From assembly GCA_019096065.1 (NCBI GenBank), contig JAGUCH010000005.1, positions 6,758,001 to 6,822,000 of the forward strand: DNA of 64,000 nucleotides, given 5' to 3'. Within the stretch, counting starts at the first letter, position 1. Each line of letters starts with the position of its first letter. Origin of the DNA: Paracyclopina nana. Lineage: Eukaryota; Arthropoda; Copepoda; Cyclopoida; Cyclopettidae. The notes under the pieces were generated by a model, which had not been told where the DNA came from, did not search any database, and worked only from the letters and a program-made list of their open reading frames with translations. The translations under genes and the position numbers were made by a program. Below, one piece after another: positions 1 to 64,000 of this stretch.

Positions 1-1176
1 ATTGTCAGTGGTCCATTGCCTTGAGGGCATTCTGCCATTCACATTGAACCTTTTGATCTCTGTTTCATCAAAGTACTCAGTGCAGGCCATTTGCCTCACC
101 AGTTGTTGTCTCTTACCACTCGCCATGTTTGGCTCAGTAATTAATTGTTGTTGTTGGTCAAAACTGGAGCTGTTATCACACTGTGAGCACCGCCTTTTAC
201 ACCGACAAGTTTGCTCAGCTGCTGCTGCTGCTACTGTTGGTGGATTAACCTGTCTTCTACGCTGTTGAGGGCTACAGCTGGAATTACATTTCCACTTTTT
301 GCCTTCGCGAAACCCTTGCGAAGTTTGGTTAATCAGATTTATGACAGACTGAAAGTAGGAGAAATTGGGTTACGCACCATAGCTATCCAGCTACTTTCCA
401 GCATCACCAAGGTTACATCATCTTACATTTATACCACCTGCATAGTTAAACACGTCTAATTAGGGTCATTAGAGGACTAATCACAAATGACACTTTGTCG
501 CAAAGCATGAATGAGGGAATTTGATGTCCTCTTGGTAATCTCAAGGCATTGAAGACTGGCATTCTTTGACTCATTCCACAGTTACATTTGTTGAAAATGT
601 ACCTTGATAAAAGCATGTTACGAATGAATTGCAAATTCTGTGGAGCATCCTATATCTAACATATTAATAGCAGTTTCAGTAGGTGTAGAAAAGTTGAGAC
701 TAACCATGGCATGTGCAGACTCTTCCCATCAACTTTATTGAAACTTTTAAACCAGAGCTCTCTTCGACAAATGAAACTGTTTTGCATCTCACAAAATCCA
801 GCCACTGGGTGACTTGGATTATCTAGCACGCCAAAAATTGGCCCCTTTCAGCCAATGCGACAAAGTGTCATTAGTGATTAAGCGTTAAACGACATATAAC
901 CTTGACGATGTCATGGTATATCATACGTACTTTGTAGCTTTGAGCCAGAGGATCTAGTGGCTGTTGCCTAAGTTGTTGATGTTCCACTTGGTGGCTTTTC
1001 ACAGCAGTGATGACTGCAGACTTGTCCTCGTCATCGTCGAAGACATTGTCCTCAATGATGTCATCGATGAAGACTGCAGTGGAGTCGTCCTCAACAATGT
1101 CTGGCTTGAAGATGGAACTGGACACATCGGCTGTGGTAGAGCAATCCTCTGCTATGAATTGGGCCATTTTCACCAT
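1..1176 (-). CDS. Unrecognised gene, first two exons, runs off the left edge
   Basis: Two exons: 1176..931 (82 codons, ATG at 1176 or 1167) and 348..1 (116 codons, open to the window edge). The donor is AAA|GTACGT and the acceptor CTTTCAG|TCTGTC; both are phase 0, so the frame closes. The N-terminal exon is very acidic (runs of D/E). The second exon holds a Cys-rich stretch with the pattern C-x3-C near its start, then C-x-C-x3-C-x2-C (residues TCRCKRRCSQC) after an alanine run, then a glutamine run. The Cys pattern recalls CXC/tesmin-type zinc-binding modules, but spacing and length do not match well enough to name a family. A nuclear, metal-binding protein is possible. The 3' end is outside the window. 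Confidence 0.5.
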
Positions 1177-4100
1177 TTATTGGGGAAATAACAGCAGGAC
1201 AAAGAGGGAAAAGGGGGGAAAATGGGACAGTGTGGAAAAGTACCATTGAGGGTATATGTTGGTGTACTGAAAATTGCCACACCTACGTTATTACAGTAGT
1301 ATTCTGTACATGGTGTAGCCATGCTTTGATGACAGTATATTTGAGCCGATCATATACCAGTATACCAACAGTTTGAATAGTATACCACCTGCCTACTCCA
1401 TCATTATGATTATATTAAGATGCAGTGATGGCAGATACCCAGCTTTCACCCTAATTACTTACTTCAACATCTGTCATGACCATAATGTTATCAAGATACC
1501 AAATTGGTATACATGGTATACTACCAAAGTTGGCAGCTATAACTTTTCTTACACATACAGATAAATGATGAGAGATGGCTAATTACATTAATGATGCTGA
1601 GCCGCTGGGCTTCTACAAAATGTAATCTTGCAGCTGCTGCAAGCAGAGTGCCAGTTTTATATACCATGTTATAAATGTATACCAGCTCTAGACATCAAAG
1701 GGATATAGAAGATGACGACAGCGGAGTACAGTGCAAAATATAGCAGGAAATTACACGCTCTAACTTTGCTTTTGTCTAAAGCTACATAGTATGCTACTAG
1801 AAAAGATGGAGTGTACCAATGGTGTATTATTGTACCAAGCTACGTTTGGTACATATATACCATACAGTTGCAATTTTTTCTCTCAATAAGTTGTATGATA
1901 TCACTTTGCACACTGGTATATGCAGCAACTATGAAATTGTAGTACTATTTCCATTTCTGATGATGGTATTTCTCCATAATGGCCGGAAATTGGTATATCA
2001 AATATACCCACTATGATATTTGGTTCTGTAAGAGGATTTGCACCAAAATCCTCATTGCAACATAATTTTGTTTCGAAAAAGGCAAAATGAGGTGTATACT
2101 TTTATCTTATTAATGCTCTTTGGTAAACCATCATGCAAAGTAAAAGTCTTTTTTACCATTACGTTAATAATGTAATTGGCCTAATTGCGCAAGAAAAATA
2201 CCGAACTCGGTACACTGCACCTTAAAATATGGGAATAATGAAAAAATATACGACTGAGGGTATTAATTGGTAATCCCCAATGAAGAAAGGGATGAAGTAA
2301 ATCCACCACCTCATGCTGGTATAGTAATAAGATACCAGGTATAATCTGGAATTGTTTTTCCTAGCAGTTGTTGTTGTTTTATGCCACCTCAGAGTCGATA
2401 TACCAAAGCTGAATGAAGGTTACATGCAATACCATTGATAACAACAGGCAGTCACATTTTCAGATTTTATACTCCAAGTTAAATACCAAATGAGTAGCTT
2501 CATGTGAAAGATTAATTAATCCCGGTTATCTCTATCCAACTTTGCATTAGTGATAAATAGTATACCATGAGACACATTTTAGAGGAGGATAAACTTTGGC
2601 TGGCTTAAATACTAGCTACGTCTGCTAGTATAGCCTATAACTCATCATTAGCGGTATGCTCTCGCAGGAAGAAGCAAATTTTGATGCCCTAAAGGAATTA
2701 TGAATCATGATCAGATCATGATAAATGAACTGATGATATATACCACGAATCTCTCATAAAACTTTGAGATGTGGAAGATGATGGTATATATGGATTATTT
2801 AGACCAGAGATGAGAGAAGCTTAATTGGTGGTATAGCATTGCTAATATGCCATTCCTCCAACTATAGGGTGTGCACTTGCCAATTGATCAATGCTATACC
2901 AATGTATACCAGTTATACAAACTGCATGAATGTTAACCCAAAAATTTCAATATCAGTATACCGGTATATGAAAGTCATCATGCTTGCCAATTAGGTAGAC
3001 AACATGTATAGGTAAAGAATGCATAAGAATGGGTGCTTACCTTGGAATATGACCAGTTATACTTGGTATATCTTGGTATCCCGGTTTTCAACCTGAAACT
3101 GTGAACTCGTCTCTAAAGCTCTCGCAATGTTATACCAGCAGTATACCAAGCGAGCGAGAGAGAGAGTTACTCTCTGTCTGTTTAGTATACCATGGTATAC
3201 TGCTAGTATACCACCGCTCTCGCTTCAACATCGCGAGGCCACACGGCCTCGCAGCAGCCTCTTTCGCTCCAGAGAGCCTGCTTACCTTCATTTCTACACC
3301 TTTTTTAAAGTCGTCATCATGGTATCCTAAGGATATACCAGGTTTTTGAGCTATGAAATGTAGGTGAAGATACCGTAAACGCACTCTTGAGAACAATTAA
3401 TGGAAAATTTTTTTGTTAATCCCGCTTAAAATTAAGACCTCTTGACATTAAGCCATCATAAACTGAAAATTGCTTAAAATTTAGTGACTGTTGACTGGTA
3501 CGAATTTTAATATATCGACTGTGAGCAATCAATGTAAATACACGCGTGTAAGCAGTATTTTTGAAGTGAAGCATTGAGTTACGGTAGCTGCCAATCAAAT
3601 ACATCGGAAATCCCCAGATACTCATCAACATCTTCCGTAATCGCATTATGCGAGCGGTATTGTCAATTGAATACTGCTCACACCATTCACGAAGAAAAAT
3701 CTACATTTGTTGTTTGCTTTTTTCTCTCAAACGTATTCACCGGCATTATCTGTAATCTGCTTACTTTTGTCATCAAGTTTTGTTGTGCAACAAGAGCAAC
3801 TTCTTGTAAGGTTTTTAAGGTGTCCTATCTAATGTAACCTAGTTATACCAGGAAAAAAGCAAGAGTTGACTCTCATCACTCTTTTGTTTGATTAGCTAAA
3901 AATCCAAGAAAAAAGTTTGCTCAATTTTCTGGGGATTTCAAGTCTGTTATAACCGTGCAAAGATCTTTGGTAAATCAAATGTACCCTCGCAAAATGAGGC
4001 AAAAACGAGGAAAATCTCAGTTTATAATCTATCAACTAAAAATCCACGAAATCACTTTAAACGTCTACATAATTCAGATTTTTAACTATTCTTGGTACCA

Positions 4101-4724
4101 GAGGAAAAAGATGAAAATAATGGTATCTTCAAATTAGTTCAATGGAACACAAAATCAATAAAGATCAAGAGTTGATACCAATAAAGATCGACTAAATTCA
4201 ATTATGGCCTATAGTATTCAATTATGCAAAAACTTGCCCATAATTACGTTAGTCCTGAGAGCTGAAAATAGATGGCGCTTTAGCTAGCCTAAACTCAAAG
4301 CTTTCTTTTGTCAACAGTGCCACCTAGCGGTGAACTAGGGAAGGTGAGATTTGCTCAACTCAAATGCATCATAAGGTACACAAAAATATGCTAAGACATA
4401 ATCTAATAATACCTTCCTATTGTGTCGCAACGCTCACATACCATCTCTATTTTGTGGTGGTTATTCAAGCATAACTGTGTACCTCATAACTAGTTTATAT
4501 ACCAACTAGCTGTGTTTTGCTATACACATATAAGTACAGAGTTATAAAACGGCATAAAAGGTACAAATCTTCACAATGCATCGCAAAGCTTTGTTAATCC
4601 ATAGTCGTAAAAATTGGAATATCCTCTCATTCATTTTCTTAATACGAATCAAATATGGTAAAATGGCATCATTTCAAGGCAGTATAGAATGGTTTATAAG
4701 GTTTAAAATTACATGTAAAACTAA

Positions 4725-4946
4725 GGCCTGGTTCACCTGCGATATTATGATCAAAATATCGAGCGATATTATGCTGATATTTGCAAATATGAGGTACTTC
4801 CAAAATCATTTTTCAGATTTTTTCTTCGGATTCGGTCTTTTGGTACCAAAAGCCATCCTACTACAGTATCTAAATTCTCAGTGTCTCAGTATTTCGCTCT
4901 GATATTTTGACAAAATATCAGATATTATAAGCAGGTGAACCATGCC
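4725..4946. mobile_element. 222-bp non-autonomous TIR element (PIF/Harbinger-like MITE), copy 1
   Basis: The ends are inverted repeats: left GGCCTGGTTCACCTGC and right, read in complement, GGCATGGTTCACCTGC (15 of 16 identical). The element is flanked on both sides by TAA (4722-4724 and 4947-4949), fitting a 3-bp target duplication. The interior has the words GATATTATG and TGATATTTGCAAATAT, also found in copy 2 at 10011-10224. There is no coding capacity. A TIR with a TAA/TTA target duplication is typical of PIF/Harbinger MITEs; the superfamily assignment is inference. Confidence 0.8.
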
Positions 4947-5180
4947 TAAGTGTGTCCAAAGTTTTAGCAAATACCTTCCATATATTGTACATAGTAAATG
5001 GTTTAACTTTTAGGTGGTATAAATTGGTACACACAGCATGTCAAAAGTACATAAAAGAGCTTGTTAAATCAATTGTTAAGATAATTGGTTTACTCTCATT
5101 AAATCTTATTCGAAATGCCAACAAAATGGAAATATGTGGTATAACATGGCATTATTAAAGGGTGGTATAAATTGACTTAC

Positions 5181-5461
5181 GTGTAACGGTTTGGTCTAAC
5201 ACGTGCGAAAGTCCCAAGGTGATACCAACCATGATTGCAGCGAGGAATGTCATGGTTAACCCAATACAGGATATAACCAATACCAGCCGTTTTCGCTCCT
5301 TTTCAGGTGGTACCACAAAGTCCTCAAAGTCTTCAGTGTCAGTTATGTCCTTGTCGGCCTTCAGCATCTCGGCCACGGCCTCGAGGTCGCCCGAGGCTGC
5401 GTAGGCCGCGACGGCCTCAGAACAGCGTCGACTTGTGGTTGGGTATAAACTGCTACGTCGA
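5181..5461 (-). CDS. Exon of a single-pass membrane protein (module 2, TM exon)
   Basis: GC-rich open exon of 93 codons between a possible acceptor (CTCAAG|T, 5461) and a strong donor (C|GTAAGT at 5181); an alternative acceptor lies slightly upstream at CAACAG/CAGCAG. It encodes a Ser/Arg-rich and acidic cytoplasmic part, then KERKR, then one hydrophobic helix (LVLVISCIGLTMTFLAAIMV) and the start of an ectodomain. The helix, the preceding basic residues and the phase-1 donor match the exon at 16310-16437, so the two look related. The exon at 11618-11975 ends in phase 2 and could splice here (this start has one leading base). Type II topology is inferred. I do not recognise the family. A small candidate next exon (about 3290-3330, TTAG|GA...AAG|GTAAGC) fits the phase but is weak. 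Confidence 0.45.
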
Positions 5462-7540
5462 CTTGAGCCAGGCGTTGAGTTGTCTGCTGTTGCATGGTAT
5501 ACCCCAAAAGTTATAGCCATGAGAAGTACCACTTTTCTTGTGGTATATACGCCACTACATCAAGTTTGGCCCGCTTGGTATATGGCAAGATTGCCCTACA
5601 GGGTATATACCCTTTTATTGACCATTTCAGCATACACTGCAACTTTCAGCTAGATTACGCTCCTTATCTGGTAGAACGGGTATACTACTGGTATAAATGT
5701 GCCAGAACACTATGATGGTATATTTTTGCAAAGCCGAAAATATAGCTAATAGGTATTTTTCCCATAATTTCGGTGACCTGACTTTGAAAGGTAGCAATAA
5801 AAAGTAAATAATTTTTATGATTTAAATTGGTATTTCTTTGTTGGTATTTATTTATACCTTGCTGTTAGAATTATGAAATATGGCTCTTATGCACGCCAAA
5901 AAGTATCAAACATGAGCGCGGTATATATCTCCATGAATATGCAATCTTGTGCTCTGATATACCTTGGTATGCTGCCTATTTTACAAGTGGTATTTTTCTC
6001 TTGTGAATACACGATGATTTGCAGGTGTGCACAGTGTACCAGAAAAGTTTTGGTGGTCATGACTTTGTAACTAAAGACCACCGCGCGCCAAGTTTACCTC
6101 CGTGGTATGGAAAGTTTCTAATGGCGGGAAAAGTTTCGGTCAGAGTAGTGTATGTATGCAGAAGAAGCATATACCAAAATATACCATCAAGCAGAGATCC
6201 TTGACACACACACACAAGTTCTAGATGCATTTGAATTATTAATAACACGAAGAAGTGACATGGTTAAACACTTGGTATGTTTTTGGTACTTTATCACCTT
6301 CAAATAAAGTCACAGGTGATACTCACGAGTTAAGGATACTGTATAACCTGAATATTGCCATAATTTTCTTGGCTCAAACTCAAAAAAAAGTTGATATGGC
6401 TGACAACATATGGGAAAATGGGTTGAAAGTCTCCCGAGAGATTTGTGTTCTTTGAGTCCATGATGGATGGAACTGGGATAGGTTCATTGGGGCATCATTT
6501 TCACTCTATGGTAGAATGTTAGACACGGCAAAACAATCTTGGGAGTAAACCAAGACAAATGGTTCACTTTGTTGCTCTGAGAAAGCTGTCTAACTCCCGT
6601 ACTTCTCCTCATGGCGACAAATGTTTTGCAAACAAAAGCTGGTGGAATTTCATCATCTGCTGAGCCCCTAACACTCGCTGAGCCCTGAGCTGAGAAAAGT
6701 ATTTAGCTCGTCAGCGACCGTAGATCCAATTATTCTATGGCTGCTCATTGGTGTAATTACATTTGCATCTCCCTGACATGTTATAGTACAACCGTAGACG
6801 AGTGCTGCGCACCACAATTTTCATACTACTGAAACATGTTACTGTGTTTTCCCAAAAATTCTTTAAGTGGCGCCTCTTGAGAAAACCGTTAAAATCTGTC
6901 TAGACTGACTGGCGCCCAGTTTTTGTTGGTGCAAATTGGATGGATTCACTAAAGCGAATAAAAGAAAGCAATTTGGGGTGAAAGGCGTGAAGGAAAGGCC
7001 ACAAACGAAATCACTCTTCTTTTTCCAGTAAATACTCAGCCAAAGTTGGGCTAAAAATTACGCTCAGAGAGCGGAGGAAAGTAAAGAGAGAAGATAAAAA
7101 AGTGTCTTTCAACTTCAAATTGAATTTAGTCAGTTGGTTGTTGAGAGCCCCAGGGAAATCATTTCAGCTCTGGAACAAAAATGAGGAGATAAAAGGCCCT
7201 TTTTGAAACTTTTCATGTTTCTCATGAATGATGGAGCAAATGTTGACTTTTAAACCAGAGAAAAAGCCACCTAATCAAACTTTGTTCAAGCAAAAGCTTG
7301 AGCAGCTAGAAAAGATTTAAAATTGGGCAAAACCCAAGCAAAACTTTTCACGCACGAACGAAGCGAGTGCGTTAAAAAACAAAATTGATGACCTAAGTTA
7401 TTACCTTAAACATTAACGTGACATTAGTTAAACTAATACTGAACTAAACCAAGTCCCTTTTCCAATTTTCATGCAATTCCCCTTAAAGCCAATTTTAATG
7501 AGATAGAACTCTGTGGATTTCCCCAATAATAAAGTTTTGT

Positions 7541-7820: not shown

Positions 7821-7849
7821 CTGAACGAGTTAAACACTTCTTGAATTCT

Positions 7850-8350
7850 ATTAGACTTGGTAACTTATGAGACTTGGTAACTCATGAGACTTGATAACTC
7901 ATGAGACTTGGTAGCTTATGAGACCTTGTAACTTATGAAAATTTGTAACTTATGAGGCTCGGTAACATATGAGACTTGGTAGCTTAATTATGAGACCTTG
8001 AAACTAGCGACTGTGTCATGTATGAGACTGTGAAGTATATGAGACTTGATAAAATATGAGGCTTGGTAGCATAGGAGATTTGGTAACTTATGATTATTAA
8101 AAACTTATGAGACTATGTAAGGTATGAGCATTTGTAAGCTATGAGGCTTTGTAAGTTATGAGACTTTGCCGGTTACAAGACTTCGTTTTAATGACACTTT
8201 TTTGCTCATGAGTTATTTCAACTGAAAAGATGGCAGCTTTTAAGACTTTGTAACTAGACTAGAAACCTGCTCGACTTAGTGAAGCTTAAAAGACTTTGTA
8301 GCAGATATGAGACTTTGCACCAAATGAGACTTTGAATCTTAACTCCTGTA
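7850..8350. repeat. Degenerate tandem array, unit about 18-20 nt (ATGAGACTTGGTAACTT)
   Basis: Roughly two dozen imperfect units of the form ATGAGACTTGGTAACTT or variants (ACTTTG, CCTTGTAAC) follow each other with irregular spacing. Decay increases toward 8350. No coding potential is seen. Confidence 0.75.
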
Positions 8351-8744
8351 AGATTTTGCATTTTCTGACAATATACCCGTAGATACTTTTCTACTTCTGA
8401 GATCTTCTAACCACAGAAACAATATGCATTGCTGAGACCGTCAGCTAAGATATAGCTAAGATCATTTGAGAAAAATTAAGATCCTCCACGGACTTGCGAC
8501 TTTGCCAGTAGCCTTCACCTCGAAACTGAAATTGAGTTTTCCGAGCATATTCCAACTATGGTAATTTTATTTGCTGTGGATCGAGGAGCCATCAAAGGCC
8601 CTCAACCTTCTATGGTTTGATTTGCATCTCAAGACCTTTTAGCTCCCGAATAAGTTGACAGTTCAAATGACAAATTAAAAGACATCTGACCTCTCATTTT
8701 TCCTCAAAGGAATTCAGAGCAAAGCTAAGCAAGTCATTTTTGAA

Positions 8745-11205: not shown

Positions 11206-11209
11206 ACAA

Positions 11210-11975: not shown

Positions 11976-12439
11976 CTACAAAGTTCATGATGTGTTTGAA
12001 GGCTTGAAAATTGGCGTTTTTCAGGAATTCCATTCTTTGAAAGCAAGTTGGACCTTTTCCACTTATACTATTATTTTTTTATGTCCAATTCAGGGCTTAG
12101 TTTTGCGTAAAAGGCTTTTTCCAAGCTCTCAGTTTTGGAGTGCAATTTTAATTGTATTTAAGTTTTATGGAAGTTTTTTTCTTAGTTTTGAGAAAAAGTG
12201 ACCAAATACTTCATTTTGTTGGCTAATTTTGTTGGTCAGCGCCTAATTTTGACAGACTGCATAATGCAGAATCTCGTGCGCTACATTTGGAGAAAAATTG
12301 CCCTTGGACATTTAAAAATAAGTGCTTAATTTTGATAAATAAGTGGTGAGGCAGCTGCTCATAAATTGTGCTTTTTTTTTTATCTCGAAAGCTCTGTGGA
12401 ATGTCCATTAATTAAGGCAAAGTAGAGGTAACTCAAAAA

Positions 12440-13600
12440 AGGAGGAGAAAACTAGTACAGTGCTGTATTCAGAATACATTTTATCCTCTACAGAATACAT
12501 AATTTGGAAGGAGTAATTTGGTGAAAGCTTTGAGATTTGCAATTGAAATTGGCTAGCAAACTTTCGAGAGATGAAATGCAATTCTCCAATCAGGAAAGTT
12601 CACAATTATTAGCCTGAATCAGATCTATCTGGTTGTGCATGCACCATTATGTACCAAAAATATTGTACCCGCCACTTGTCTTTTCTTTGTGTGTATGTCA
12701 TCGTGAATGTAAGCCGGGCTTTCCTTTGATCCCAACTTCTAAAGCTCAATACAAAATGCTGTATTGCTCATTGTTTCCCACAGAATTCGCAGAAAAATGT
12801 ATTTAGCTGTATCCTCCGTATTTTCAGGGGATCCAGTATTTTTACTCATAATAGAAGGGGAAAAGTTTTTGAGCAATGTCTATCATTTGTTGAGAGTTTA
12901 ACTATCGGTATTTCAGCTGTATTTCACAGAAAATACATGCGTGCATTCTACCTTACATCTGCAAATCACTCAGAGCTACTAAGGCGCTTATGCTAGCAAT
13001 TTTCTTGATGTATTTCTGCACCATTACAGAATACATACACAGCTAAGCTTACTAAAGTAATTTTGTGCTTAAACGCTCTGTATTACCTTGTATGAGAATG
13101 TAATGAAGTTGATGTATTGTGCTAAGAAAAGGCAGCAGAGGGGCGATATGTATCGGATTTACCCTGACAAGTTAATCAAATAAGCTACATTGCACTGACT
13201 GAAAAATATATCCACGATCCAAAATACACTTCTATCCCAGTTCATAAGATGCTGCTAAGCATCCACAATACCAATGACTGTATTAGCCTTAAAAAAAAAC
13301 TAATTCTGAATAAATCAAAATCAGCACCATTAGTATTTTACTGTCTCAGTCTAATGTTCATTACTGATCTTTAATAACTAAATTCTCATTCATGGAAATG
13401 TATTCAGTAAAAATACTAGTTTAAAGTATCTTAGTTAATTAATTAGCCTAAGACCTCAAGTGAGTCAAAATGTATTTAATGTTGTCAATACACTTCGAAA
13501 AAACTGACTTCTTTCAAAGTCATGTATTCTGTAAACTATAGCTACTTCAAGATGCAAATGTGTTCTGAATACAGCCCAAATGTGCATTTTCAGCTCAAAA
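12440..13600. repeat. Zone rich in GTATTC/GAATAC words
   Basis: The words GTATTC, AGAATACAT and TGTATT recur many times in both orientations, scattered rather than tandem. The same vocabulary returns at 22590-22990. I see no gene between 11976 and 16309; 13600-14870 holds only a repeat fragment (14020-14110), and 14870-16260 is another GGTATA/TATACC zone. Confidence 0.55.
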
Positions 13601-16309
13601 TGTCCCACCTGTATCCTCGAGCTCGTCCTCATGATCCAAGGAAGTCGAGTGAAGCAAGATGGGCGGCGGTGGAGCCAACATTTTGTTTATGAACAGCACA
13701 ACATTAACATGTATATCAGGATCAGCTGATGATGTTTAAAAATGTTGTTTTTCCATGAGAATCCAGGGCATAACTGAAAATGGTGAAAGCAGAAGCGAAG
13801 CGGCTTCTTCCATGAAGAAGAAGCAGAGAAGTTTCTCTGTTTTGTAATAAAACATGAGGGCTTTCACCATCAGCCTTCTTCTCCCATAGCGACGGTGACA
13901 GCCTCTATTATGGAGGCCAAAACGAAGGCCCAACATCAACTCCTCAGCCCAAAATCGAACCCCATTAAGAGATATCGAAAATTAGCCCAATCTCAGAGTG
14001 AATGATGCAAGCAAGGAGGTGGAAAGAAGCTGAGCAAGGCACTTTGAAGGCTATAGCTCAATAACTACCATATCATTTGGACACAAATTTGCTCAGTTTC
14101 ATAAAGAATGCTTATACCAAATGTCGATACAAAGATGCGATACTTTTTAACTATATATTTTGAAAAAAAGCATATTTTTTTAGGTTTACTTAGACATTCA
14201 AGGCCTAATTACATGTTGGTTTTTTCAACTGACAAAAGCCTTTTTACAGCTACCCTTTTAAGCAAATAAAAATCAGGCTTATGAAGCCAGACTTTGATCT
14301 GAACCAATGTGTTTTAATTAGACATTTAACCATCTTCCATTTAACAAGAATTTCTCAATATAGAAAGCAATGGAAGTTGTCATTGTTTGTGTTTGGACTT
14401 GAGGGCTCTTGTGAAAAGCAAGCTTCTCCACAAATACAGATTCGTGCCCCATTACAATTTGTATCCCAACACAGGAATTTGCAGATGAAAAGTTGATTGA
14501 TTGGCATGGCCTCCATTTTCCCCTAAGCATTTCTTAATTTTCCACCTTGTAAAAGCAAAATTGAATCTACCGCACAAAATACACTTTTCCTTGAATTTCC
14601 ATGAAATAATCAAAGTTCTAATTCTAATTAAAATCCAAGTTTTGTGCCAGCATGCACGAGCATAATTTTTCTGTTTGTAATTGGAAGAGTTGTTTGTGTA
14701 GCATACCACCATAATTAAATGTATTTGAGCGGAAATTGTAGGTTGGCAAATACAGAAAGCCTTGCGCTACAACTACTATTTTCTGTATTTTACAACTTTT
14801 ATAGCAATTCTGCAAGTAGCATGTGTTATGATTGAACTGTCAAAAGAGTTGCAAAATGCTGGTAGTTTCATTTATACCACGAAAACACAATATATACCAC
14901 TGCTCTGGAAAACCTCTGTGTATTCTCGGATACGCTTGTGTATTCCAACTGAAACTATTTAATGGTATTCATTACGCGTGCAGCTTTTTGAACCGTCAAA
15001 ATACATGAGGGGAATCCGCAAGTAGTGTACCAGAATGTACCACAAGTTTACCTTCAGACCCAAGTTCCAAAATCCTGATATAAACCACTTATCATACTTT
15101 TACGGTATTCTCGTAATTACTAGTCAGGAATGCAATATTTCTGGTATTTCACACTCATACAAAAATAAACCAGTATAGCAGTAAATGATTAATAACCGAA
15201 AAGTAATGTACCATTATGCTATACCAGATGTAGTATTGTGTTGCTTCATCAAATTTACCCTTTATTCAATCCGGCAGCGGACGGAAACTGGCCAGTCTGG
15301 TAATTGGGTATAGCAATATACCAAGGTATATATCAGATTCTCTTTGAAGTCAATAAAGAAGAAGGACCCAATATAGTATACCGCGCTGTGGATCACAACT
15401 TTTATACCAAGTTTCCACAAAGACTGACAGAATATACCATCATAGCCGGGTATGGTATATTTTTTCTGATCCACTAAAAGCGCAAGATGATCTATAGTAA
15501 TAAGGTGAGTTCTTGTCGCTGCTTTACTATAGCACACAGTCTGACTGAGCTGTGGTAGGCTTCAAGACAAAATTTCAATAGAATTCTGTGGATTTCACTT
15601 TCAAAAATTTCCATAACCAGCCTTAAATTATCAAAAAGTGCCCAAATTGCATACTTTTTTAAAAAAGACAGAACTTATCTAGGAGCTCTGTTGAAGACGC
15701 GTGAGATTAGCCTGCTTGCCTCCATGACTGACACGTCACTTGAGCTCACGCGCTATGTAGTAAGAACTACTAGCGCCACCTAGGCTAAGACAAACAGATT
15801 TGGTGATTTTAGCATGCAAAACTTGCGTCAAGAACTCACTTACGAGACCCCCCTGTAAAAGCGAAGCTTTCGTTGGTATAATATACCGTTTGGTTCATAA
15901 AGAGGGCGCTGTGATCGTTGCAGAGTTGGCTAAAGCGACACCTATTTGAACTTTGAGTAACTAAGTTTGAATGATATTAATACAAAAATAACCAATGTAT
16001 ACCACATAATCAATAACAGAAAGAAGTTTTTGTTAATGGTGCGCAACTTAAGATACCATTTTATACCATAGTTACATGCCTACGTATTTTTGGTAATTCT
16101 CTACATTTCGCAATGCCTTTATACCAATTTATACCACAAAAGATTATAAATTAGGAACTTACGAGTTTATATAAATAATCTTAGATCGATGCAAGCATTA
16201 CCATCAATGAAAGAAGATAACTCTGCTTGCTAAATTGTATAGTCTATGCGACTGGTATATAGAAAGGGTTTTAAAATTCAGTAAAACTAAAAAATTTGAA
16301 TTGACTTAC

Positions 16310-20699: not shown

Positions 20700-21345
20700 C
20701 TAGCTAATTAAGTTACATTATCACAAGTCCAAAGTTGTCAAGTCCAAGGTTCAAAATAATTACGTTACATGATGAAAAGTACAAGGTTCAAAGTAATTCA
20801 GTTACATGATGACCTAGGTTGTCACGTCCAAGGTTGTCGAGTCCAAGGTTGTCAAGTCCAAGGTTCAAAATATTTACGTTACATGATGACAAGTACAAGG
20901 TTCAAAGTAATTCAGTTACATGATGACCTAGGTTGTCACGTCCAAGGTTGTCAACTCCAAGGTTGTCGAGTCCAAGGTTGTCGAGTCCAAGGTTGTCAAG
21001 TCCAAGGTTGTCAACTACAAGGTTGTCGAGTCCAAGGTTGTCAAGTCCAAGGTTGTCAAGTCCAAGGTTGTCAACTCCAAAGTTGTCGAGTCCTAGGCTG
21101 TCAACTCCAAGGTTGTCAAGTCCAAGGTTTTCAAGTCCAAGGATGTCAAGTCCAATTTGACAAGTCCAAGGTTTTCAAGTATGAGATATGCTAGTGAAGT
21201 TCAAAGTTGTGAAGTCTAAGGATGTCAAGTCCAAGGTCATCAACTCCAATGTTGTCAACTCCATGGTTGTCAAGTGCAAGGTTGTCAAGTCCAAGATTGA
21301 AAGGTCCAAGGATGTCTTGCCTAAGGTTGTCTTACTCAAGGATGT
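20700..21345. repeat. 15-nt tandem array (AAGTCCAAGGTTGTC)
   Basis: About 30 units of AAGTCCAAGGTTGTC with variants (AACTCC, GAGTCC, GGATGTC), clearest at 20930-21150, plus an older layer that includes GTTACATGATGA. Since 15 is a multiple of 3, one frame encodes a 5-residue cycle, giving a 141-codon ORF that I treat as an artefact. The unit shares the core GTCCAAG with the 14-nt array at 19180-20060, so the two arrays may be related. Confidence 0.88.
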
Positions 21346-21640: not shown

Positions 21641-23559
21641 CTGCAATGAAAAAAGGCCTTAGTTTATCATATCCTGGCTTTGCAGCTTTTAAGGGATCAT
21701 TTTGGCTTTCTGAAGATTACTTTTACTGCTTCTGCTAGTGAGAATAGTGTATTAAATGTATCTTTTGCCATACAACTTTTATTTTGCTCATGTTTCACTT
21801 TAAGATTGAGCTCAAAAAATGTTTGGCTCACAAAAAATATAATGCACTTGTAATGCAAGCTGTTATGTTGTTGTGTCCAAAATACTGCTATAATATGATA
21901 ACAAAACATTCTATCCCCTTACATCTGAACATCTGATAATTTGAAAACTTTTGTTTGAATACAGTTGAAAACTGTAGCTGGTACAATTTCACATTTCCTG
22001 CATTTTACATGGCTTTGAAATTGCTTTGCTGACACCACCACCTTTTTTGGTGCCAAAAAGAAGGATCTTTTTTCCTGCTGTGAAGAAAAGGAGGAATTTT
22101 CTTTTCAGAGTGGGATTACTGGCTGCCAAGAGAAAATTGAGAGCTTGACACTTTCTTCAGAAAAAGGAATTCAATTTGTATGAATTTCATCTTTATTTGC
22201 ATTCTATGATATTTAACAATTCTAGCTTTGAATTAACATTATTTCATGGTGAAATGCAACTTTCTAGTTTATTTTTTAGTTTTGAATAACAAACATCGTA
22301 ATTTTTGTTTTTGAACTTAATTCAAAATTATTTAGTGGTATTTTATCTAAGAACATAATTTGATATGTATTTTGGAGGTTTTTTTGGGGAAAGCAATTTT
22401 GTGAAGTGCAAAAAATGACAAAAAAGTTTTTTTTAAAAAATTCATGAACATTCATATTTTGATGCAGTTTAATTCCAAATAACACTTCGATTTCATTCTG
22501 ATTGCAAAATATTCTACATGGGCATTGTTTGCTTTTTTAAAAAGGCTGAAGGCTAAAAATCGATCCCAAAAACCGAACCAACACATTCTGGTATGAATTA
22601 GTTCTTACCGAAACACGCTTCTGTATTTTGAGCTTTTAGCTACAGTCCGCAAAAGTGTAAGTTACTTGATAGTTGAGTGCACTTTTAAAATACATTCATT
22701 GCAGTGAATGTATCCACTTCAGAATACAGATGTATCCATGCTGGTTGTATTTGCTCAACTAGTGAATTTTGGACGACGACGTTTGTTGCACCTGCTCTAC
22801 TTTCCACTAATACACGTGTGTAAGGCACAACTATAAGGAATAGTACAACCTTTCTGTATCCTGAGTATTCTGACAGAGTATCGATTATTCTTACTCTCTC
22901 TGATTAGCTATGCAAAATGTATTCAGTCATGGAATATTACACTGAAATGTAATGAAAACACTGCTAGTGTATTTTAGGTGTATTTTTTGTTCTGGACACT
23001 TGCTCAGTATCCGCGAGCGCGCTCTGCTCTCCTCATTCAAGAGAAAAAAGCTAAATACTTGAGTAATATACCCTTTTTTTCGGTATACCATTGGTACACC
23101 AGCATAACCCATTCACCTGCTTCAATTTCCTAACTGCCAAAATCTTGTTAGGAGAATCATTACTGTGTCTGGTGCGCTAGTGCAACTTGATACTTGAAGT
23201 GTACCATGGTATACTTTTTGTAACCGTGGGTCATCAGAGAAGCCTTCACTAACATAAACTCAAGAAGTAAGTTTTGAGGTATACCAACTAAAATAACCCT
23301 GTAAAACTTGACAACAAAAAGAAAGAAAAAAAAACTGGTCTCAACTTAAGGCCATTTTTTATTTTCACAATGCACATTGCATGTATTCCTCACATCACCA
23401 ATTGGCTATCTTCAGTTTTTAATTGCTTCTTCCTGCCAAGGAAAAATAATTTTTGGTTAAATTGTTGATTGTGATTGATTCCGCCTCTGTGCTAAAGGTA
23501 AAAGTTACTTCTGTATCTAGTAACCTAATACATGCTAAGCCATATTGTGTGTATGGTAT
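21641..23559. other. Intergenic, no gene seen; word zones at its right end
   Basis: AT-rich DNA without supported exons. From 22590 to 22990 the GTATTC/GAATAC words return and from 23060 to 23290 the GGTATA/TATACC words return. Confidence 0.45.
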
Positions 23560-28127: not shown

Positions 28128-28326
28128 TAAAGCTAGCTTTAGATGTCAACTCGATGAAGGCCAATCTCAAATTAAATCAGGACTTCTCAAAACAAGAATA
28201 GCTACAGTGAATTTAAGCGTCCCAAGTCTGGATTGAGGAGGCGGACAGTCGAGCAGTAATTTCACTGCCGAATAATAATCAAAGCAATTCACAAGCAGAT
28301 TTTGTATGTTTGTGGTATATCAATAG

Positions 28327-28332
28327 TTTATT
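28327..28332 (-). terminator. Polyadenylation signal AATAAA of the Der p 7-like gene
   Basis: TTTATT on the plus strand (AATAAA on the minus) lies 15 nt beyond the stop codon at 28347. Confidence 0.55.
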
Positions 28333-28346
28333 TTAGAGTAGTTTCT

Positions 28347-31300: not shown

Positions 31301-32033
31301 TCACCTTTTCTTAAATTAGCTTTAACCTAATTTGCTACAAAGTGCTAAAAATTGATCTTTGGTCTTAAAAATCCTAACATATTAATTAAATCTGAAATAT
31401 GTGAGAATGATATCTCAAATCCTTAAATTATCTCTCAAATCCTTAAATTAGATCTCAAATCCTGAAATTAGATCTCATATCCTGAAATTAGATCTGGAAT
31501 TCCAAAATTAGATTATAAAACCTAAAATTATATCTAAAACCTTAAATTAGATCTAAAACCCTTACATTAAATCGAAACCCTTAGATTAGATCTTAACCCT
31601 TAAATTAGATCTAAAACCCTACAATTAGATCTAAAACAATATAATTAGACCGAAAACCCTTAATTAAATTAGATCTAAAACCCTTAAATTAGATCTAAAA
31701 CCCTAAATTAAGACCACAAATCATAAAGTAGATCTAAAATTCTGAAGGTCTTTTATTAGGTCTAAAACCCATGTATTAGGCCTAAAATCATGATATTGAG
31801 TCAAAAATCATTATGGTAGGTAAAAATACTCATAATAGGTCTTCAATTCAACTTTAGACCAATATGCACAAGTGATTGCTTTCATGAAAAAAAAAGTTTC
31901 ATCGAAGCACGTTTTAGATCAAAGAATAAAAAATTTAGATCTTCTCTTTTAGGTTTTGCTTACCTTGAGCTCTGAGTACAGCAGCACTCATGATTGTCAG
32001 CAGAGTGAGCCTCATTTGTGCACCACAGCTCAT
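28347..32033 (-). CDS. Secreted Der p 7-like (group 7 allergen, TULIP-fold) protein, 5 exons
   Basis: Exons 32033..31964, 31052..30871, 29958..29867, 29059..28823 and 28428..28347 join in phase to 220 aa. The first exon is a signal peptide (hydrophobic RLTLLTIMSAAVL). The mature part has KYNRFMDEIFSRMNSAIKAK followed by NLDPMDL, which matches the opening of the group 7 allergen domain. Further on come the strand-like VKAWLHGMSSLKRTGDVSI and the ITDVYFDEPGGVDVSG segment. Family members are ~200-aa extracellular lipid-binding-type proteins of mites, insects and crustaceans; the ligand is unknown. Introns 2 and 3 hold extensive tandem repeats. The family call rests on motif order and length, not a search. 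Confidence 0.68.
29240..29790. repeat. Two abutting tandem arrays, 17-nt then 19-nt unit, in intron 3
   Basis: From about 29298 to 29535 some 14 nearly identical 17-nt units GAGACAGTGCTCAATTT occur. From about 29536 to 29790 the unit becomes 19 nt, GGCAAAGTGCTCAATTTGA (about 13 units). Both share GTGCTCAATTTGAG. The array sits inside the intron between exons 3 and 4 of the Der p 7-like gene. Confidence 0.92.
30400..30830. repeat. Word zone AACTGAGAC/GCTGAGA in intron 2
   Basis: Scattered copies of CTGAGAC, GCTGAGA and AACTGAGA at irregular spacing. It belongs to the intron between exons 2 and 3 of the Der p 7-like gene. A similar GAGACAATTTGCTGA vocabulary appears at 28480-28790 in its last intron. 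Confidence 0.6.
31380..31880. repeat. Degenerate tandem array, about 20-nt unit (TTAAATTAGATCTAAAACCC)
   Basis: Twenty or more decayed units with AGATCTAAAACCCTTAAATT words fill the first intron of the Der p 7-like gene. The left part uses the variant ATCTCAAATCCTTAAATT. Confidence 0.8.
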
Positions 32034-45079: not shown

Positions 45080-46009
45080 TTAGATCCTCTTAAAGAATTG
45101 GACCGAGGTGACGTCTTCACAAATCATTTGCACATTGATGCCGTCATCAGTGAACTCACGGATGACCTTTACGTCCTTTTGACCGTCCTTCACGGCCTTT
45201 TGACACGTGACCATTTTGTTGTCGCCCTCCATTGTCACAGTGGTCTTGCATTTGCGCCCATCAGCAGTATCCTCGTCAAATTCAACTCCCTTTAAAAACA
45301 TAAACAAATCAATTTCTATTTATCATCTATTTTTTTGTAATAACGGCCAAGTCATAGACTTATACTCATAGAAAAATTATGAAAAATCATTATGGATTTT
45401 AAAAACTCAACATAGATCTTAAAAAATCGACATAGATTTCAAAATATCTTAATAGATTTGGAAAAATCATTATAAAATTGAAATAAATTCTTAAAATTAT
45501 AATAGATTTGGAAAAACATCATAGATTTGGAAAAACATCATAGATTTTGAAAAACATCATAGATTTTGAAATACATCATAGATTTTGAAAAACATCATAG
45601 TTTTAGAAAAACATCATAGATTTAGAAAAACATCATAGATTTTGAAACACATCATAGATTTTGAAACACATCATAGATTTTGAAAAACCATCATAGATTT
45701 TAAAAAAATTCATATATTTTAAAAAGTTATCATAGATTTTGAAAAATCATAATAGATTTCGAAAAACCATCATAGATTTTGAAAAATCTTCTTTGATTTC
45801 AGTAAGTTTACCAGCTCGAATTCCAGAGTCATGCTCTTGAGGGTGGTGGAAGTGACGAATTTCCACTTTCCTCCCGTCTCGGAGATTTCCATGGTTGGAG
45901 TCGAGGCCATGGCAGCCTTCCTCATCATGAGGCCGACGCCCAATTTGTTGAGGAAGTCCTCGTACTTCTCCTCAGAGGCTCTCTTGTATTTGCCAGTGAT
46001 TTGCACCAT
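45080..46009 (-). CDS. Fatty acid-binding protein (intracellular lipid-binding family), 2 exons
   Basis: Exons 46009..45812 (66 codons) and 45289..45080 (69 codons plus stop), phase 0, 135 aa, the normal family length. The N-terminus GKYKRASEEKYEDFLNKLGV and the centre FDEDTADGRKCKTTVTMEGD are typical of arthropod FABPs; the end closely parallels mite Der f 13-type proteins. It would be a cytosolic beta-barrel carrying fatty acids or retinoids. Odd: the usual ligand-carboxylate motif R-x-Y near the C-terminus reads Q-F-F here (SVQFFKRI), while the other internal arginine (VIREF) is kept, so ligand preference may differ. The start was chosen for family length; the frame stays open upstream. 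The intron holds a 19-nt array. Confidence 0.92.
45370..45800. repeat. 19-nt degenerate tandem array in the FABP intron (ATCATAGATTTTGAAAAAC)
   Basis: About 20 units with small changes (AAACACATC, GGAAAAACATC) fill almost the whole intron up to the exon border. Confidence 0.9.
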
Positions 46010-46319: not shown

Positions 46320-47345
46320 CTTTACTTCTCAGCTTCGCTCCTTGAAATGCTCAGCTTCACAGCTTATAATACTTAGCTTCGCCTTAAAATACTCAGCTTC
46401 GCTCCTTATCACGTTTAGTGTTCCTCTGTTTAAAAATCAGCTTCGCTCAAAAATACTCAGCTTCGCTCAACAATATTCAGCTTCGCTCAAAAACTATCAA
46501 CTTCGCTCCTGAAAAAAGCTCTATTTCACTTATATAATATGATAAATTACTAAAAAATAAATGGCTTCTCTCATAGAAAATTTCAGCTTTGGTGAATAAT
46601 AATGTCAGGCTCGGCTCCCTTATCAGTAACCGCTTCGCTCTTTTTAGAAACCTCCCCTTTTACCGCAACAACACTAGACTATTTGAACAAGAAAAGCCAG
46701 TTTTTTTCGCCACATTTTGACAACCGAGATATTAAAAAAATATCCCACGCTCTTTTACCCCATTTTTTCTGGATCATTCTGACTGATAATGTTTCACTTC
46801 AAGGAAGGCCAAAGTTCACCAAATGCAGAGCAGCCTTTTTTGGCAATCTTTGTGTAATCAAACTCTCATACTCGATATAAACATTTTACTTCATGCTTTA
46901 TTGTAAGTACAGATTAATGTGTATATAGTCATTTAATTTGTGTAGCACCTTTGTTTGCATAGTTGGACTGGTTAAACTTTTGAAATTAATACAAGTTGCT
47001 TTATCGGAGCAAAAATCATGATCTTTGCTCACTCGAAAAAAATCAAGCTTCTTTCTCTTGGCTCAGTTTTGTTAATGAGCGAAGAGCAGAAGTTTGGCAC
47101 TTAAGTTCGAGTGAGCGAAGAACGTGACTTTAAGGACATAAAATGTCAGTCTCTTCGCTCATGTTAGTCATTTGAGCGAAGAGCAAAGAATGTGCGTTTC
47201 CAAGAGTGAGCGAAGAATATATATGACCTCTTCGCTCATTCTCAAGAAATGTGTTAAGCATGTGACGCTTCGCTCATCTTAGCCGTTGAGCGAAGCTCTT
47301 GAGTTCTTCCTTGAGAGGCTTCGCTTGTTGATCTTTTCGCTTCGC
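46320..47345. repeat. CTTCGCTC/GAGCGAAG word zone between FABP and RSU1, entering the RSU1 coding end
   Basis: The octamer CTTCGCTC occurs repeatedly (CAGCTTCGCTC at 46330-46520), and from 47020 in both orientations (TTGAGCGAAGAG, CTTCGCTCAT), making many small palindromes. The zone does not stop at the RSU1 stop codon (47279) but continues to about 47345 within the last exon. No other gene is seen in 46010-47278. Confidence 0.8.
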
Positions 47346-48512
47346 TCAGGTGGCGGAACGTTGGCTTGAATATGGCGGCTGTACAAGTACTTGTACGTCT
47401 CAGTGCGGATGTACTCGATCACGTGACTCACGCCCAAAATCAGCTGATCTTCAATGGGCGGAACCCAAGGATTGTTGTCCAGCTTCAAGATCCTCCTCGA
47501 GCTCAGGAAATCCAGCTGTCCAATCTGTGGCGGGAGAACAGTCAACCTGTTTCCCTGAAGGTGAAGTTCCCTAAGGTTGCTTAGCTGGCCAATCTCCTCA
47601 GGGATGTCCACAAGTTCGTTGTCCCTCAAGGCCAGAATCCGAAGGTTCACAAGGTTCTTCACCTTTGGCGAGAGTAGCTCGAAATCATTGTCACTGAAAA
47701 ATAAAATGGAACTTAAACGGTTCTGCAAGGATAATCATGTAATAATAATTCAACAAAATCAGGTCCCATGAGAATTACAAAAGGTTTATTTGTAAGTTTC
47801 GCAAATAACTTAAGAAGGTTCCATGAAATTAGCAAGGTTTTCATAGAATCTATAAAGGTTCCAATGGAATTTGAAAAGATTCTCACGGAATCAAGGAATT
47901 TAGCGAACCTGAAAAGGTTCTTAAAGAGAAAGTACCTAACCAGGTTCTCATAGATGCTTACAGGGTTATCATGGAACCCAACAAGGTTCTCATAGAACCC
48001 AGCTAGATTCTCATGGAAACTAACAAGATTCTCATGGAACTTAATCAAGACCAATAGTTAGACAAGTGGAAGTATTCAAATTACCTCAGGTAGAGAGCCC
48101 TAAGTGTATGAAGCATGAAAAAGTTTTCAGGTAAGCTGTCTTCATTAAGCATGTTGTAGGACAAGTCAAGCACCTCCAGAATGGAGAATGATCCAAAGCC
48201 TCTTGGGAGCGACTTTAAGCGGTTCATACCCAAGTTCAAGATCCTCAATTTGGACATGCCAGACAAGGAGACAGGCACTTCAGTCAGGGCATTGTTGAAG
48301 AGGTTCAAAATCTCCATGTTCTCCAGGTTGGCAATAGCTGGTGGCAGCTCAGAGATCTTGTTGTGGCTCAGGGTGAGTCGAGTGATGTTTCGCATGGTCC
48401 AGAGCCTGGACATGTCGTCCATATGGACCAGGCTCTTGTCACTGAAGTCTATCTCAGCATTGGGAACGCCCTGGGCCTCCTCCAGAGTCTTCCTAACAAT
48501 TTTGGAAGACAT
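47279..48512 (-). CDS. RSU1: Ras suppressor protein 1 (leucine-rich repeats), 2 exons
   Basis: Exons 48512..48085 and 47693..47279, phase 2, 280 aa (human 277). About seven LRRs run from residue 40 to 200, for example ITRLTLSHNKISELPPAI, MSKLRILNLGMNRLKSLPRG and LRELHLQGNRLTVLPPQIG, followed by the family-specific LGVSHVIEYIRTETYKYLYS. RSU1 binds PINCH in the ILK-PINCH-parvin complex at integrin adhesions and dampens Ras signalling. The C-terminal tail after PPPERSEK is Lys/Arg/Ser-rich as in other species, but here its codons consist of the GAGCGAAG/CTTCGCTC word of the flanking repeat zone. The intron contains an AAGGTTCTCATAGAA word array at 47760-48050. Confidence 0.96.
47760..48050. repeat. 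Degenerate tandem words in the RSU1 intron (AAGGTTCTCATAGAA)
   Basis: About 15 loose units containing AAGGTTCTCATGGAA or variants at intervals of roughly 20-30 nt fill the intron between the two exons. Confidence 0.75.
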
Positions 48513-59818: not shown

Positions 59819-59836
59819 TCAAGAGTATTCAGCTTT

Positions 59837-63065: not shown

Positions 63066-63072
63066 TATAAAA
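63066..63072 (+). promoter_or_regulatory. TATA box of the NATD1-like gene
   Basis: TATAAAA, 37 bp before the start codon at 63109, implying a very short 5' leader. Confidence 0.6.
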
Positions 63073-63108
63073 GTTGCGCGTCTAAAACTAAAGAAAACAT
63101 AAACAAAA

Positions 63109-63420: not shown

Positions 63421-63440
63421 ATTTCCCGCTCATGAACATG

Positions 63441-63446
63441 AATAAA
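63441..63446 (+). terminator. Polyadenylation signal AATAAA of the NATD1-like gene
   Basis: AATAAA 20 nt past the TGA ending at 63420. Confidence 0.6.
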
Positions 63447-63844
63447 GTATTACACAATCTGCATAAGTTCACAAGAAAATCCTCAATTTTGACCCGTTTC
63501 CTAACTTTTTGACTATTTCTATACAGAGTTAGTAATCTGGCAACAGAATTGTTGCTAAAACAAGAGCTGTCAAGTTTGGCTTTCATCTTGATGTTTAGAC
63601 AGGATAAAAAAGGTAAGAAATTCAAGCCAGATTGGGGACACAATTTCAGGTCTGAATTCTAGCCTAAAGGCAAAATAAAATAGAAAAGATGTTGTAATCC
63701 GGATTTATAAATTATCTTAGGTAGAAATAACTTTTGTGTTTCTACTTCATTTTTAATCAAGTAAGTCTCTTTAGAAAGCTGCACTTTTTGGAATTTCTTG
63801 TGAGTAATTTTAATCATTAAAATAAAACTTTGTTATGACTTTCC

Positions 63845-64000
63845 AATACATACTTCACAATTCATTTGGATTTCTAGTGTGTTTGGATTTCTAGCATGAT
63901 TGACTTTCCAGCGTGATTGACTATCCAATTGCTTAACTTTCCTGCATGACACATTTTCCAGGATAATTGACTTTCCAATGTTTGATTATCCAGCATGATT
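63845..64000. repeat. Word zone TTGACTTTCCAGCATGAT at the right edge
   Basis: About eight loose units of ATTGACTTTCCAGCATG or variants (GATTTCTAGCATG, GACTATCCAATT) continue to the window edge. 63447-63845 contains no supported gene. Confidence 0.75.

What the first reader, a model, noticed from the sequence alone, without database searches (positions are those of the whole stretch)
1..64000. Each non-coding interval has its own private repeated word, changing at gene borders
Introns and intergenic stretches are saturated with short, interval-specific words: GGTATA (1-6 kb), ATGAGACTTGGTAA (7.9 kb), GTATTC (12.4-13.6 kb), GGTCCAAGAAACTT (19 kb), AAGTCCAAGGTTGTC (21 kb), CTGAGAC (30 kb), TTAGATCTAAAACCC (31.5 kb), GTGCTCAATT (38 kb), a 19-mer (45.5 kb), CTTCGCTC (46-47 kb), AAGGTTCTCATAGAA (48 kb) and GACTTTCCAGCATG (63.9 kb). 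They range from clean arrays to scattered words, as if intron DNA were produced by local copying of a short seed and then decayed. I know no standard repeat class that behaves this way across a whole locus.
Basis: seen in the sequence. Interest (0 to 1): 0.75.

Follow-up and report, generated by a model that had tools for sequence, protein, structure and literature searches.

The report
Chromosome-end minisatellites sharing short cores
The repeated words in this stretch of a probable arthropod genome are mostly minisatellites, local tandem copies of short DNA words, and several are not private to their place but share short core words with arrays near other chromosome ends, much as human DNA-fingerprint repeats do.

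Summary
Real, but partly misread. The window (C5 of a 92-Mb genome, probably an arthropod) is rich in local repeated words: 31 of 64 1-kb blocks pass a shuffle test, against 83 of 240 blocks elsewhere. Two things are mixed. (1) Nine minisatellite arrays; six profiled arrays decay towards at least one edge. Words of six arrays were searched genome-wide: two occur only here (21, 31 kb), four recur elsewhere. TTTGAGGCAAA is repeated at 13 places with mostly different spacers; 15 arrays read show no common flank. TGAGAC triples: 2213 hits against 151 for the reversed word. Of 11 exact-core places on C1-C9, 10 lie within 1.5 Mb of a contig end. (2) Scattered words such as TATACC, on both strands and crossing ORFs; away from two regular arrays they show no clear genome-wide excess. 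So 'a private word per interval' holds only in part; 'local copying, then decay' fits the arrays. Closest known: Jeffreys-type minisatellites with shared cores near chromosome ends. The driver is inferred.

The parts
29217..29784 (+). Minisatellite, units CAATTTGAGGCAAAGTGCT (19 bp) and CAATTTGAGACAGTGCT (17 bp), carrying the core TTTGAGGCAAA / TGAGAC found elsewhere in the genome
   Evidence: TRF; core elsewhere; other half of the unit at only 2 other places; profile; its left half is the 17-bp variant, so the measure is mixed
7849..8166 (+). Minisatellite, 17-bp unit TATGAGACTTGGTAACT; word TGAGACTTGG shared with places on C2, C6 and C7
19268..19834 (+). Minisatellite, 14-bp unit TTGGTCCAAGAAAC; TTGGTCCAAG pair elsewhere only at C9:138673 with another spacer
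20724..21345 (+). Minisatellite, 15-bp unit AGGTTGTCAAGTCCA, with a 114-bp higher-order period at its start; word pair found nowhere else
31412..31739 (+). Minisatellite, about 20-bp unit with palindrome TTAGATCTAA; word pair found nowhere else
45382..45788 (+). Minisatellite, 19-bp unit ATAGATTTTGAAAAACATC, between two exons (read by eye) of a fatty-acid-binding-protein-like gene on the minus strand; one other place, C6:7083121
46328..46515 (+). Degenerate array with the CTTCGCTC word
47030..47350 (.). Scattered CTTCGCTC / GAGCGAAG words on both strands
47934..48040 (+). Minisatellite, 21-bp unit with AAGGTTCTCATAGA, beside an LRR-coding ORF (48081-48539, minus strand)
63888..64000 (+). Degenerate 17-bp array TTTCCAGCATGATTGAC, cut by the window edge
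1001..6300 (.). Scattered cluster of TATACC(A) words, both strands, only one conserved flanking base
14701..16300 (.). Second block of TATACC(A) words
22901..23400 (.). Third, small block of TATACC(A) words
12301..15000 (.). Scattered TGTATT(C) / GAATACA words, both strands (a second small block at 22501-23000)
28300..30900 (+). One-stranded CTGAGA(C) words (18 of 18 on +, array itself left out) around the 29.2-29.8 kb array and on both sides of an ORF
38100..38550 (+). Weak cluster of GTGCTCA words (5 copies, 4 on +)

Best explanation
The arrays are minisatellites: short seed words that expanded locally and head to tail, stay alike inside the array, and decay at one or both edges into scattered copies. 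Many seeds hold one of a small set of shared cores (TGAGAC, TTTGAGNCAAA, TGAGACTTGG); the rest of each unit is the accident of the local seed, which is why units look private. Core-bearing arrays gather in the last 1-2 Mb of the chromosomes. The most likely driver, inferred and not shown, is break repair and gene conversion, or slippage, in recombination-active chromosome ends, with the core favouring instability. Scattered strand-symmetric words (TATACC, TGTATTC) are a second, separate phenomenon: clusters of short sites, better explained by repeated use of a short binding site, or by cryptic simplicity, than by decay of tandem arrays.
For: Nine arrays by TRF; decay towards at least one edge in six of six profiled. 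Core pair TTTGAGGCAAA: 90 hits at 13 places (hits within 3 kb grouped; two places are single pairs), 0 for the reversed pattern, spacers mostly different. Variants TTTGAGCCAAA and TTTGAGTCAAA in arrays, 188 hits against 4. The other half of the same window unit recurs at only 2 other places, so the core is the more widely shared part. TGAGAC triples 2213 hits against 151 (hits, not places), although both words are equally common outside arrays, 4.64 and 5.09 per 10 kb. TGAGACTTGG pairs at 4 places. Units from different loci share 8-mers more than chance (9 against 1.76 in shuffles, p=0.003, and 2.51 in random segments, p=0.01; 19 arrays). Flanks of 15 core arrays: one 57-bp match, otherwise only array-to-array hits. 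End bias: 10 of 11 exact-core places on C1-C9 within 1.5 Mb of an end, expected 29%, p=4e-5; Spearman -0.47, p=0.019, between distance to end and array fraction over 25 loci. Ends: TTAGG at 6 of 8 sampled, 1 other repeat, 1 withheld.
Against: Two of six arrays tested share no word with any other place and two others with only one place, so the core is not universal. At k=6 and 7 sharing between loci does not exceed random genomic segments (p=0.13 and 0.083); the larger figure (21 shared 8-mers) came in 12 of 21 cases from two neighbouring arrays of one locus. On relative distance the end trend is p=0.065, and for TGAGAC triples on C1 it is 5 of 8, p=0.054. Places of the control hits are not listed by the tool, so whether repeats in general are equally end-biased was not separated from a core effect. 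Searching with the core makes the core look conserved; one search is the only test of the other half. Four core arrays (L039, L040, L043, L044) have related spacers ending in TAGA and three places have almost the same unit, so part of the sharing is probably common descent. No recombination map, polymorphism or relative species was available. Hairpin tendency of units is weak (mean z -0.50, s.e. 0.27, n=19; stem excess 0.57, s.e. 0.19, n=27, looked for after seeing it).
Confidence: 0.7

Rival explanations
1. One reading: every interval copies its own random seed; the word is private and its limits follow gene borders.
For: Two of six arrays are found nowhere else; the other half of the 29-kb unit is nearly private; edge decay.
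Against: Four of six arrays share a word with other places; TGAGAC and TTTGAGNCAAA recur genome-wide; TATACC and TGAGAC fields run across ORFs and recur in several blocks.
Confidence: 0.1
2. The arrays are copies of one dispersed satellite or of a transposon with internal tandem repeats; spacers differ through divergence.
For: Four core arrays have similar spacers; places at C4:8007510, C6:6976871 and C10:90219 have almost the same unit.
Against: Flanks of 15 core arrays share one 57-bp match and otherwise only array sequence (flanks of about 0.1-1.2 kb); the same TGAGAC core occurs with periods 11 to 19 on C1 alone.
Confidence: 0.1
3. The core is kept by selection as the binding site of a chromosome-end or chromatin protein (as a CENP-B box in satellites), and arrays are multimers of that site.
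For: Core kept while spacers differ; palindromic form TTTGA-G-TCAAA; end bias.
Against: Core base N varies between arrays and is not chromosome-specific; some arrays lack the core; no protein was sought or identified; the core was used to find the arrays.
Confidence: 0.12
4. The scattered TATACC and TGTATT words are decayed tandem arrays like the rest.
For: Local clustering, and regular TATACCA arrays exist elsewhere (C2:725638, C8:1132314).
Against: In the window both strands are used alike (41/32, 20/14), flanks are little shared and spacing is irregular (cv 1.39); local word sharing outside arrays is nearly as strong inverted as direct.
Confidence: 0.15

Closest known systems
Jeffreys-type minisatellites (VNTRs) with a shared core sequence
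   Same: Units of 9-100 bp with a short core shared by many loci; most human ones map to chromosome ends (core: passages of PMC3909909; ends and recombination: passages of PMC2599865).
   Different: The core here is AT-rich (TTTGAGNCAAA, TGAGAC); the human core is G-rich (recalled). Length polymorphism and germline instability were not testable. Probable arthropod, not vertebrate.
Different satellite DNAs sharing conserved motifs, including a CENP-B-box-like one (Meloidogyne)
   Same: Otherwise different tandem repeats share short motifs, proposed to promote array rearrangement (abstract of PMC3694981).
   Different: There six satDNA families and motifs at monomer junctions; here many short-unit arrays (11-28 bp), a different motif, and no junction analysis.
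Cryptic simplicity (Tautz and co-workers, recalled)
   Same: Scrambled local enrichment of short motifs without clean tandem arrays, as for TATACC and TGTATT.
   Different: Slippage predicts direct copies; here inverted sharing outside arrays is nearly as strong as direct.
Homotypic clusters of transcription-factor binding sites (recalled)
   Same: Short words on both strands, irregular spacing, hardly any shared flank, kb-scale.
   Different: No factor, expression or conservation evidence; genome-wide, dense TATACCA triples outside two regular arrays are no commoner than the control (18 against 16 hits).

Membership tests
Minisatellite | Head-to-tail units of about 10-100 bp, in moderate arrays | tested here: met
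   TRF: units of about 14-22 bp, 5 to 36 copies, arrays of about 0.1-0.6 kb
Minisatellite | Allele length polymorphism | not testable with these tools
   One assembly only, no reads
Jeffreys-type core minisatellites | Different loci share a short core inside locus-specific units | tested here: met
   TTTGAGGCAAA pairs at 13 places, 90 hits against 0; TGAGACTTGG at 4 places; TGAGAC triples 2213 against 151 hits. Not met by 2 of 6 window arrays; cross-locus k-mer sharing of 19 units is modest
Jeffreys-type core minisatellites | Clustering near chromosome ends | tested here: met
   10 of 11 exact-core places on C1-C9 within 1.5 Mb, p=4e-5; 25-locus trend p=0.019, but p=0.065 on relative distance
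Jeffreys-type core minisatellites | Association with meiotic recombination hotspots | not testable with these tools
   No map or crosses
Transposon-borne tandem repeats | Shared flanking or terminal sequence between copies | tested here: not met
   15 core arrays, flanks all against all: one 57-bp match and array-to-array hits only
Homotypic binding-site cluster (TATACC words) | Orientation-free short words without shared flanks, irregular spacing | tested here: met
   73 sites, 41/32 strands, spacing cv 1.39, one flanking base conserved in 53 of 73
Homotypic binding-site cluster (TATACC words) | A factor binds the word and controls the gene | not testable with these tools
   No expression or binding data
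CENP-B-box-type satellites | Core matches a known protein-bound box | not tested
   No protein or box was searched

The most novel reading that the evidence does not exclude
A single chromosome-end system marks this genome: a protein that recognises TGAGAC / TTTGAGNCAAA acts (in meiotic pairing, break formation or end chromatin) in the last 1-2 Mb of the chromosomes, and its sites seed and maintain minisatellites of many periods from 11 to 28 bp, comparable in logic to pairing-centre motif arrays of Caenorhabditis (recalled) or to the human minisatellite core.
Probability: 0.12. Interest if true: 0.75.

Novelty: new member of a known kind. Interest (0 to 1): 0.4.

Why it matters
It turns 'a private word per intron' into a testable statement: in a compact, probably arthropod, genome many minisatellites of different period share a short AT-rich core, and the core-bearing ones sit near chromosome ends, a pattern described for human minisatellites. 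If the core proves to be protein-bound or break-prone, the old question of why minisatellite cores exist could be tested outside vertebrates.

Tried and rejected
Palindromic units as the rule: stems exceed shuffles by 0.57 bp (s.e. 0.19, n=27, post hoc), and single-strand folding of units is only mean z -0.50 (s.e. 0.27, n=19; nine core-family units, not independent, mean z -1.04); not used as a main claim. GGTATACC pairs genome-wide: 21+21 hits against 26+26 in the control (the word is palindromic, so each place counts twice), so the full palindrome is not enriched, and its 21 places show no clear end bias (9 of 21, p=0.13). TATACCA triples: 39 against 16 hits, but 21 of the 39 lie in two regular arrays (C2:725638, C8:1132314), which leaves 18 against 16; 16 of 18 places are within 1.5 Mb of an end (p=2.6e-7), but the places of the control hits are not listed, so this end bias has no matched control. 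One common transposon: flanks of 15 core arrays not shared. Chromosome-specific cores: rejected, N of TTTGAGNCAAA varies within C4, C6 and C8. Naming the species by SSU rRNA: not completed. Other eukaryotic genomes as controls for intron words: none were on hand. Pfam found no family for the ORFs tried at 5.2, 11.6, 16.8 and 20.2 kb, so gene borders there stay uncertain.

Selections to know: L016 read all N and was dropped. One search used 23 places picked by hand (20 of 23 within 1.6 Mb, p=2e-8); the list was cut after about 100 rows, so that set is incomplete and I rest. Searches left out the places on the 268-kb contig C10 (two after grouping; the printout says 3). One search listed only part of C1. 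Strand counts typed wrongly were corrected. The cross-array sharing was recounted without same-locus pairs.
Full report
What was checked. The window is C5:6758001-6822000 of a genome of 91,952,342 bases in 10 contigs. Sampled contig ends carry TTAGG telomere repeats at 6 of 8 places, one end carries another repeat and one is withheld. TTAGG and a fatty-acid-binding protein whose best solved relative is mite Der f 13 (E 3.5e-27) point to an arthropod.

The observation. Against 40 dinucleotide shuffles per block, 31 of 64 1-kb blocks of the window have more repeated 7-mers at p<=0.025, against 83 of 240 blocks from 24 other loci. So the excess is real and general in this genome, and somewhat higher here. 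With tandem arrays masked, word sharing at less than 120 bp is still about 1.3 to 1.9 times the level of three shuffles and fades with distance; inverted copies are nearly as common as direct ones. In masked DNA 26 of 152 2-kb segments hold a 7-mer at p<1e-5, against 1, 3 and 6 in three shuffles. Arrays cover 3.3% of the first 20 sampled loci (TRF score 50 or more), in the range of the 2.7-4.5% tandem repeats tabulated for animal genomes (passages of PMC2871265; other thresholds), so the amount is ordinary.

Not one word per interval. TATACC sites form three blocks, 1-6.3, 14.7-16.3 and 22.9-23.4 kb, through ORF-bearing DNA. TGTATT(C) forms two blocks. TGAGAC lies in the 7.9-kb array, in the 29-kb array and in a one-stranded field from 28.3 to 30.9 kb on both sides of an ORF; CTGAGA there is 18 of 18 on one strand. 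None of the 12 1-kb blocks between 50 and 62 kb passes the test. Gene models were not built; borders are judged from ORFs and Pfam hits (kinase plus ribonuclease 2-5A as in IRE1, urea transporter, ASC channels, LRR, SMP-associated PH, GNAT, and Kelch below its cut-off).

Arrays: anatomy. For six profiled arrays the match to the own unit reaches 0.85-1.0 at its best inside and the background of about 0.47 outside. The fall is gradual over 200-400 bp on both sides for the 19- and 21-kb arrays, mainly rightward for the 7.9-kb array and mainly leftward for the 45-kb array, which stops abruptly on its right.

Arrays: are the words private? Pairs of window words were searched in the whole genome, with the reversed word as control. 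AAGGTTGTCA (21 kb): 4 of 4 hits in the window, control 0. TTAGATCTAA (31 kb): two places, both in the window array; the control has one place (each counted on both strands). ATAGATTTTGA (45 kb): 5 of 6 hits in the window, one at C6:7083121, control 0. TTGGTCCAAG (19 kb): 22 of 24 in the window, 2 at C9:138673 with another spacer, control 0. TGAGACTTGG (7.9 kb): 12 hits at 4 places, control 0; copies lie 15 apart on C2 and C7, 17 in the window, 21 in a single pair on C6. TTTGAGGCAAA (29 kb): 90 hits at 13 places (hits within 3 kb grouped; two places are single pairs), control 0. By eye these 13 places have about 11 spacers, three of them with almost the same unit. The other half of the 29-kb unit, AGTGCTCAATT: 21 of 23 in the window, two other places with copies 14 and 16 apart, control 0. 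So two of six arrays look private, four share a word, and in the 29-kb array the widely shared part is the core. Three arrays (46, 48, 63.9 kb) were not searched.

The core. Allowing mismatches shows arrays with TTTGAGCCAAA or TTTGAGTCAAA; 188 hits against 4. In 15 core arrays read in full the period is mostly 18-20 bp (the window's also 17, that of L005 also 28), and N is dominated by one base, G, T or C, in 12 of 15, mixed in three. Four have related spacers ending in TAGA. Flanks are not shared apart from one 57-bp match. TGAGAC in triples with gaps of 5-25 has 2213 hits against 151 for CAGAGT (hits overlap within arrays and are not places), although both words are equally common outside arrays (4.64 and 5.09 per 10 kb). 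In the 304 kb at hand TGAGAC ties with nine other words for first of 618 non-simple 6-mers by separate triple places, with only 4 places, found in L013, L014 and the window. Between loci, units of 19 arrays share 9 8-mers, against 1.76 in shuffled units (p=0.003) and 2.51 in random segments (p=0.01); for 6- and 7-mers the excess over random segments is not significant (p=0.13, 0.083). An earlier count of 21 included 12 from two neighbouring arrays of L025.

Chromosome ends. Of 11 exact-core places on C1-C9, 10 lie within 1.5 Mb of an end, expected 29%, p=4e-5 (places on the small contig C10 left out). All 4 TGAGACTTGG places do (p=0.0075), and 5 of 8 listed TGAGAC-triple places on C1 (p=0.054). 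Over 25 loci the array fraction falls with distance to the end (Spearman -0.47, p=0.019; on relative distance p=0.065). TATACCA triples: 39 hits against 16, at 18 places, 16 of them within 1.5 Mb; but 21 of the 39 hits are in two regular arrays, so the scattered form shows no clear excess genome-wide, and the places of the control hits are not known. Whether all repeats, or only core-bearing ones, prefer the ends was not separated. GGTATACC pairs are neither enriched (42 against 52 hits) nor clearly end-biased (9 of 21).

Scattered words. The 73 TATACC sites of the three blocks are on both strands (41/32), share one further base (A after CC, 53 of 73), and have irregular spacing. In this sample TATACC is rare outside the window, 2.38 per 10 kb in 24 loci against 13.75 here. 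A decayed tandem array would keep one orientation and share flanks. A cluster of short sites, or cryptic simplicity with inversion, fits better. Function is not shown.

Mechanism, with steps marked. Shown: local tandem arrays with decaying edges, shared cores with mostly differing spacers, end bias of core-bearing places, no common flank in 15. Inferred: expansion by break repair or slippage, higher activity near ends, and a role of the core in instability. In human minisatellites the mapping to recombinationally active chromosome ends and gene conversion are reported (passages of PMC2599865), and conserved cores inside minisatellite repeats are described (passages of PMC3909909). Shared motifs in otherwise different satellites have been proposed to promote array rearrangement (abstract of PMC3694981). 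A survey of Daphnia pulex found repeats with units above 8 bp much rarer in introns than elsewhere (passages of PMC3152781), so intronic minisatellites are not a rule of arthropods.

In print? A full-text search for four array words gave 106 papers holding at least one; by title the 10 listed look like chance matches in primers or sequences, the other 96 were not seen. Searches on cores, satellites, cryptic simplicity and genome papers listed nothing that by title describes such arrays in an arthropod; only the papers cited above were opened, and those in passages or abstract.

Verdict. Ordinary in kind, with a notable twist: minisatellites with shared AT-rich cores near chromosome ends, plus strand-symmetric word clusters. 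New member of a known kind.

Noticed in passing
54982-57105 and 59862-61993: Inverted duplication of about 2.1 kb, 92% identical, with ASC-type sodium channel ORFs; in both copies the channel is split over several ORFs, introns or breaks not told apart.
   Followed up: no
4719-4946 and 10005-10223: Two 78% identical elements; the first has imperfect terminal inverted repeats (19 of 22 matched; second copy 14 of 22), like a MITE.
   Followed up: partly
17202-17567 and 25836-26281: Inverted pair of a diverged dispersed repeat, 70-74% identical.
   Followed up: no
8744-9470 and 11213-11301: Nest of direct and inverted copies of an AGCTAAG-rich sequence, 75-91% identical.
   Followed up: no
5155-5559 and about 16300-16440: Minus-strand ORFs with similar single membrane spans, each beside a TATACC block; perhaps alternative exons or tandem paralogues (judged by eye; no Pfam hit for 5155-5559).
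   Followed up: no
L026-L029 (C1:7400373 and 7412020; C2:16929259 and 16940955; C2:74117): Exact GGTATACC-CTGA-GGTATACC sites occur as two inverted pairs 11.6-11.7 kb apart and once singly, as the ends of a large element would.
   Followed up: no
L030 (C1:1-500): The left end of C1 is a GGCCT-type pentamer repeat instead of TTAGG.
   Followed up: no
G000 C8:1132314-1132580 and C2:725638-725919: TATACCA also occurs in regular arrays with steps of 20 bp and of 11/22/33 bp.
   Followed up: no
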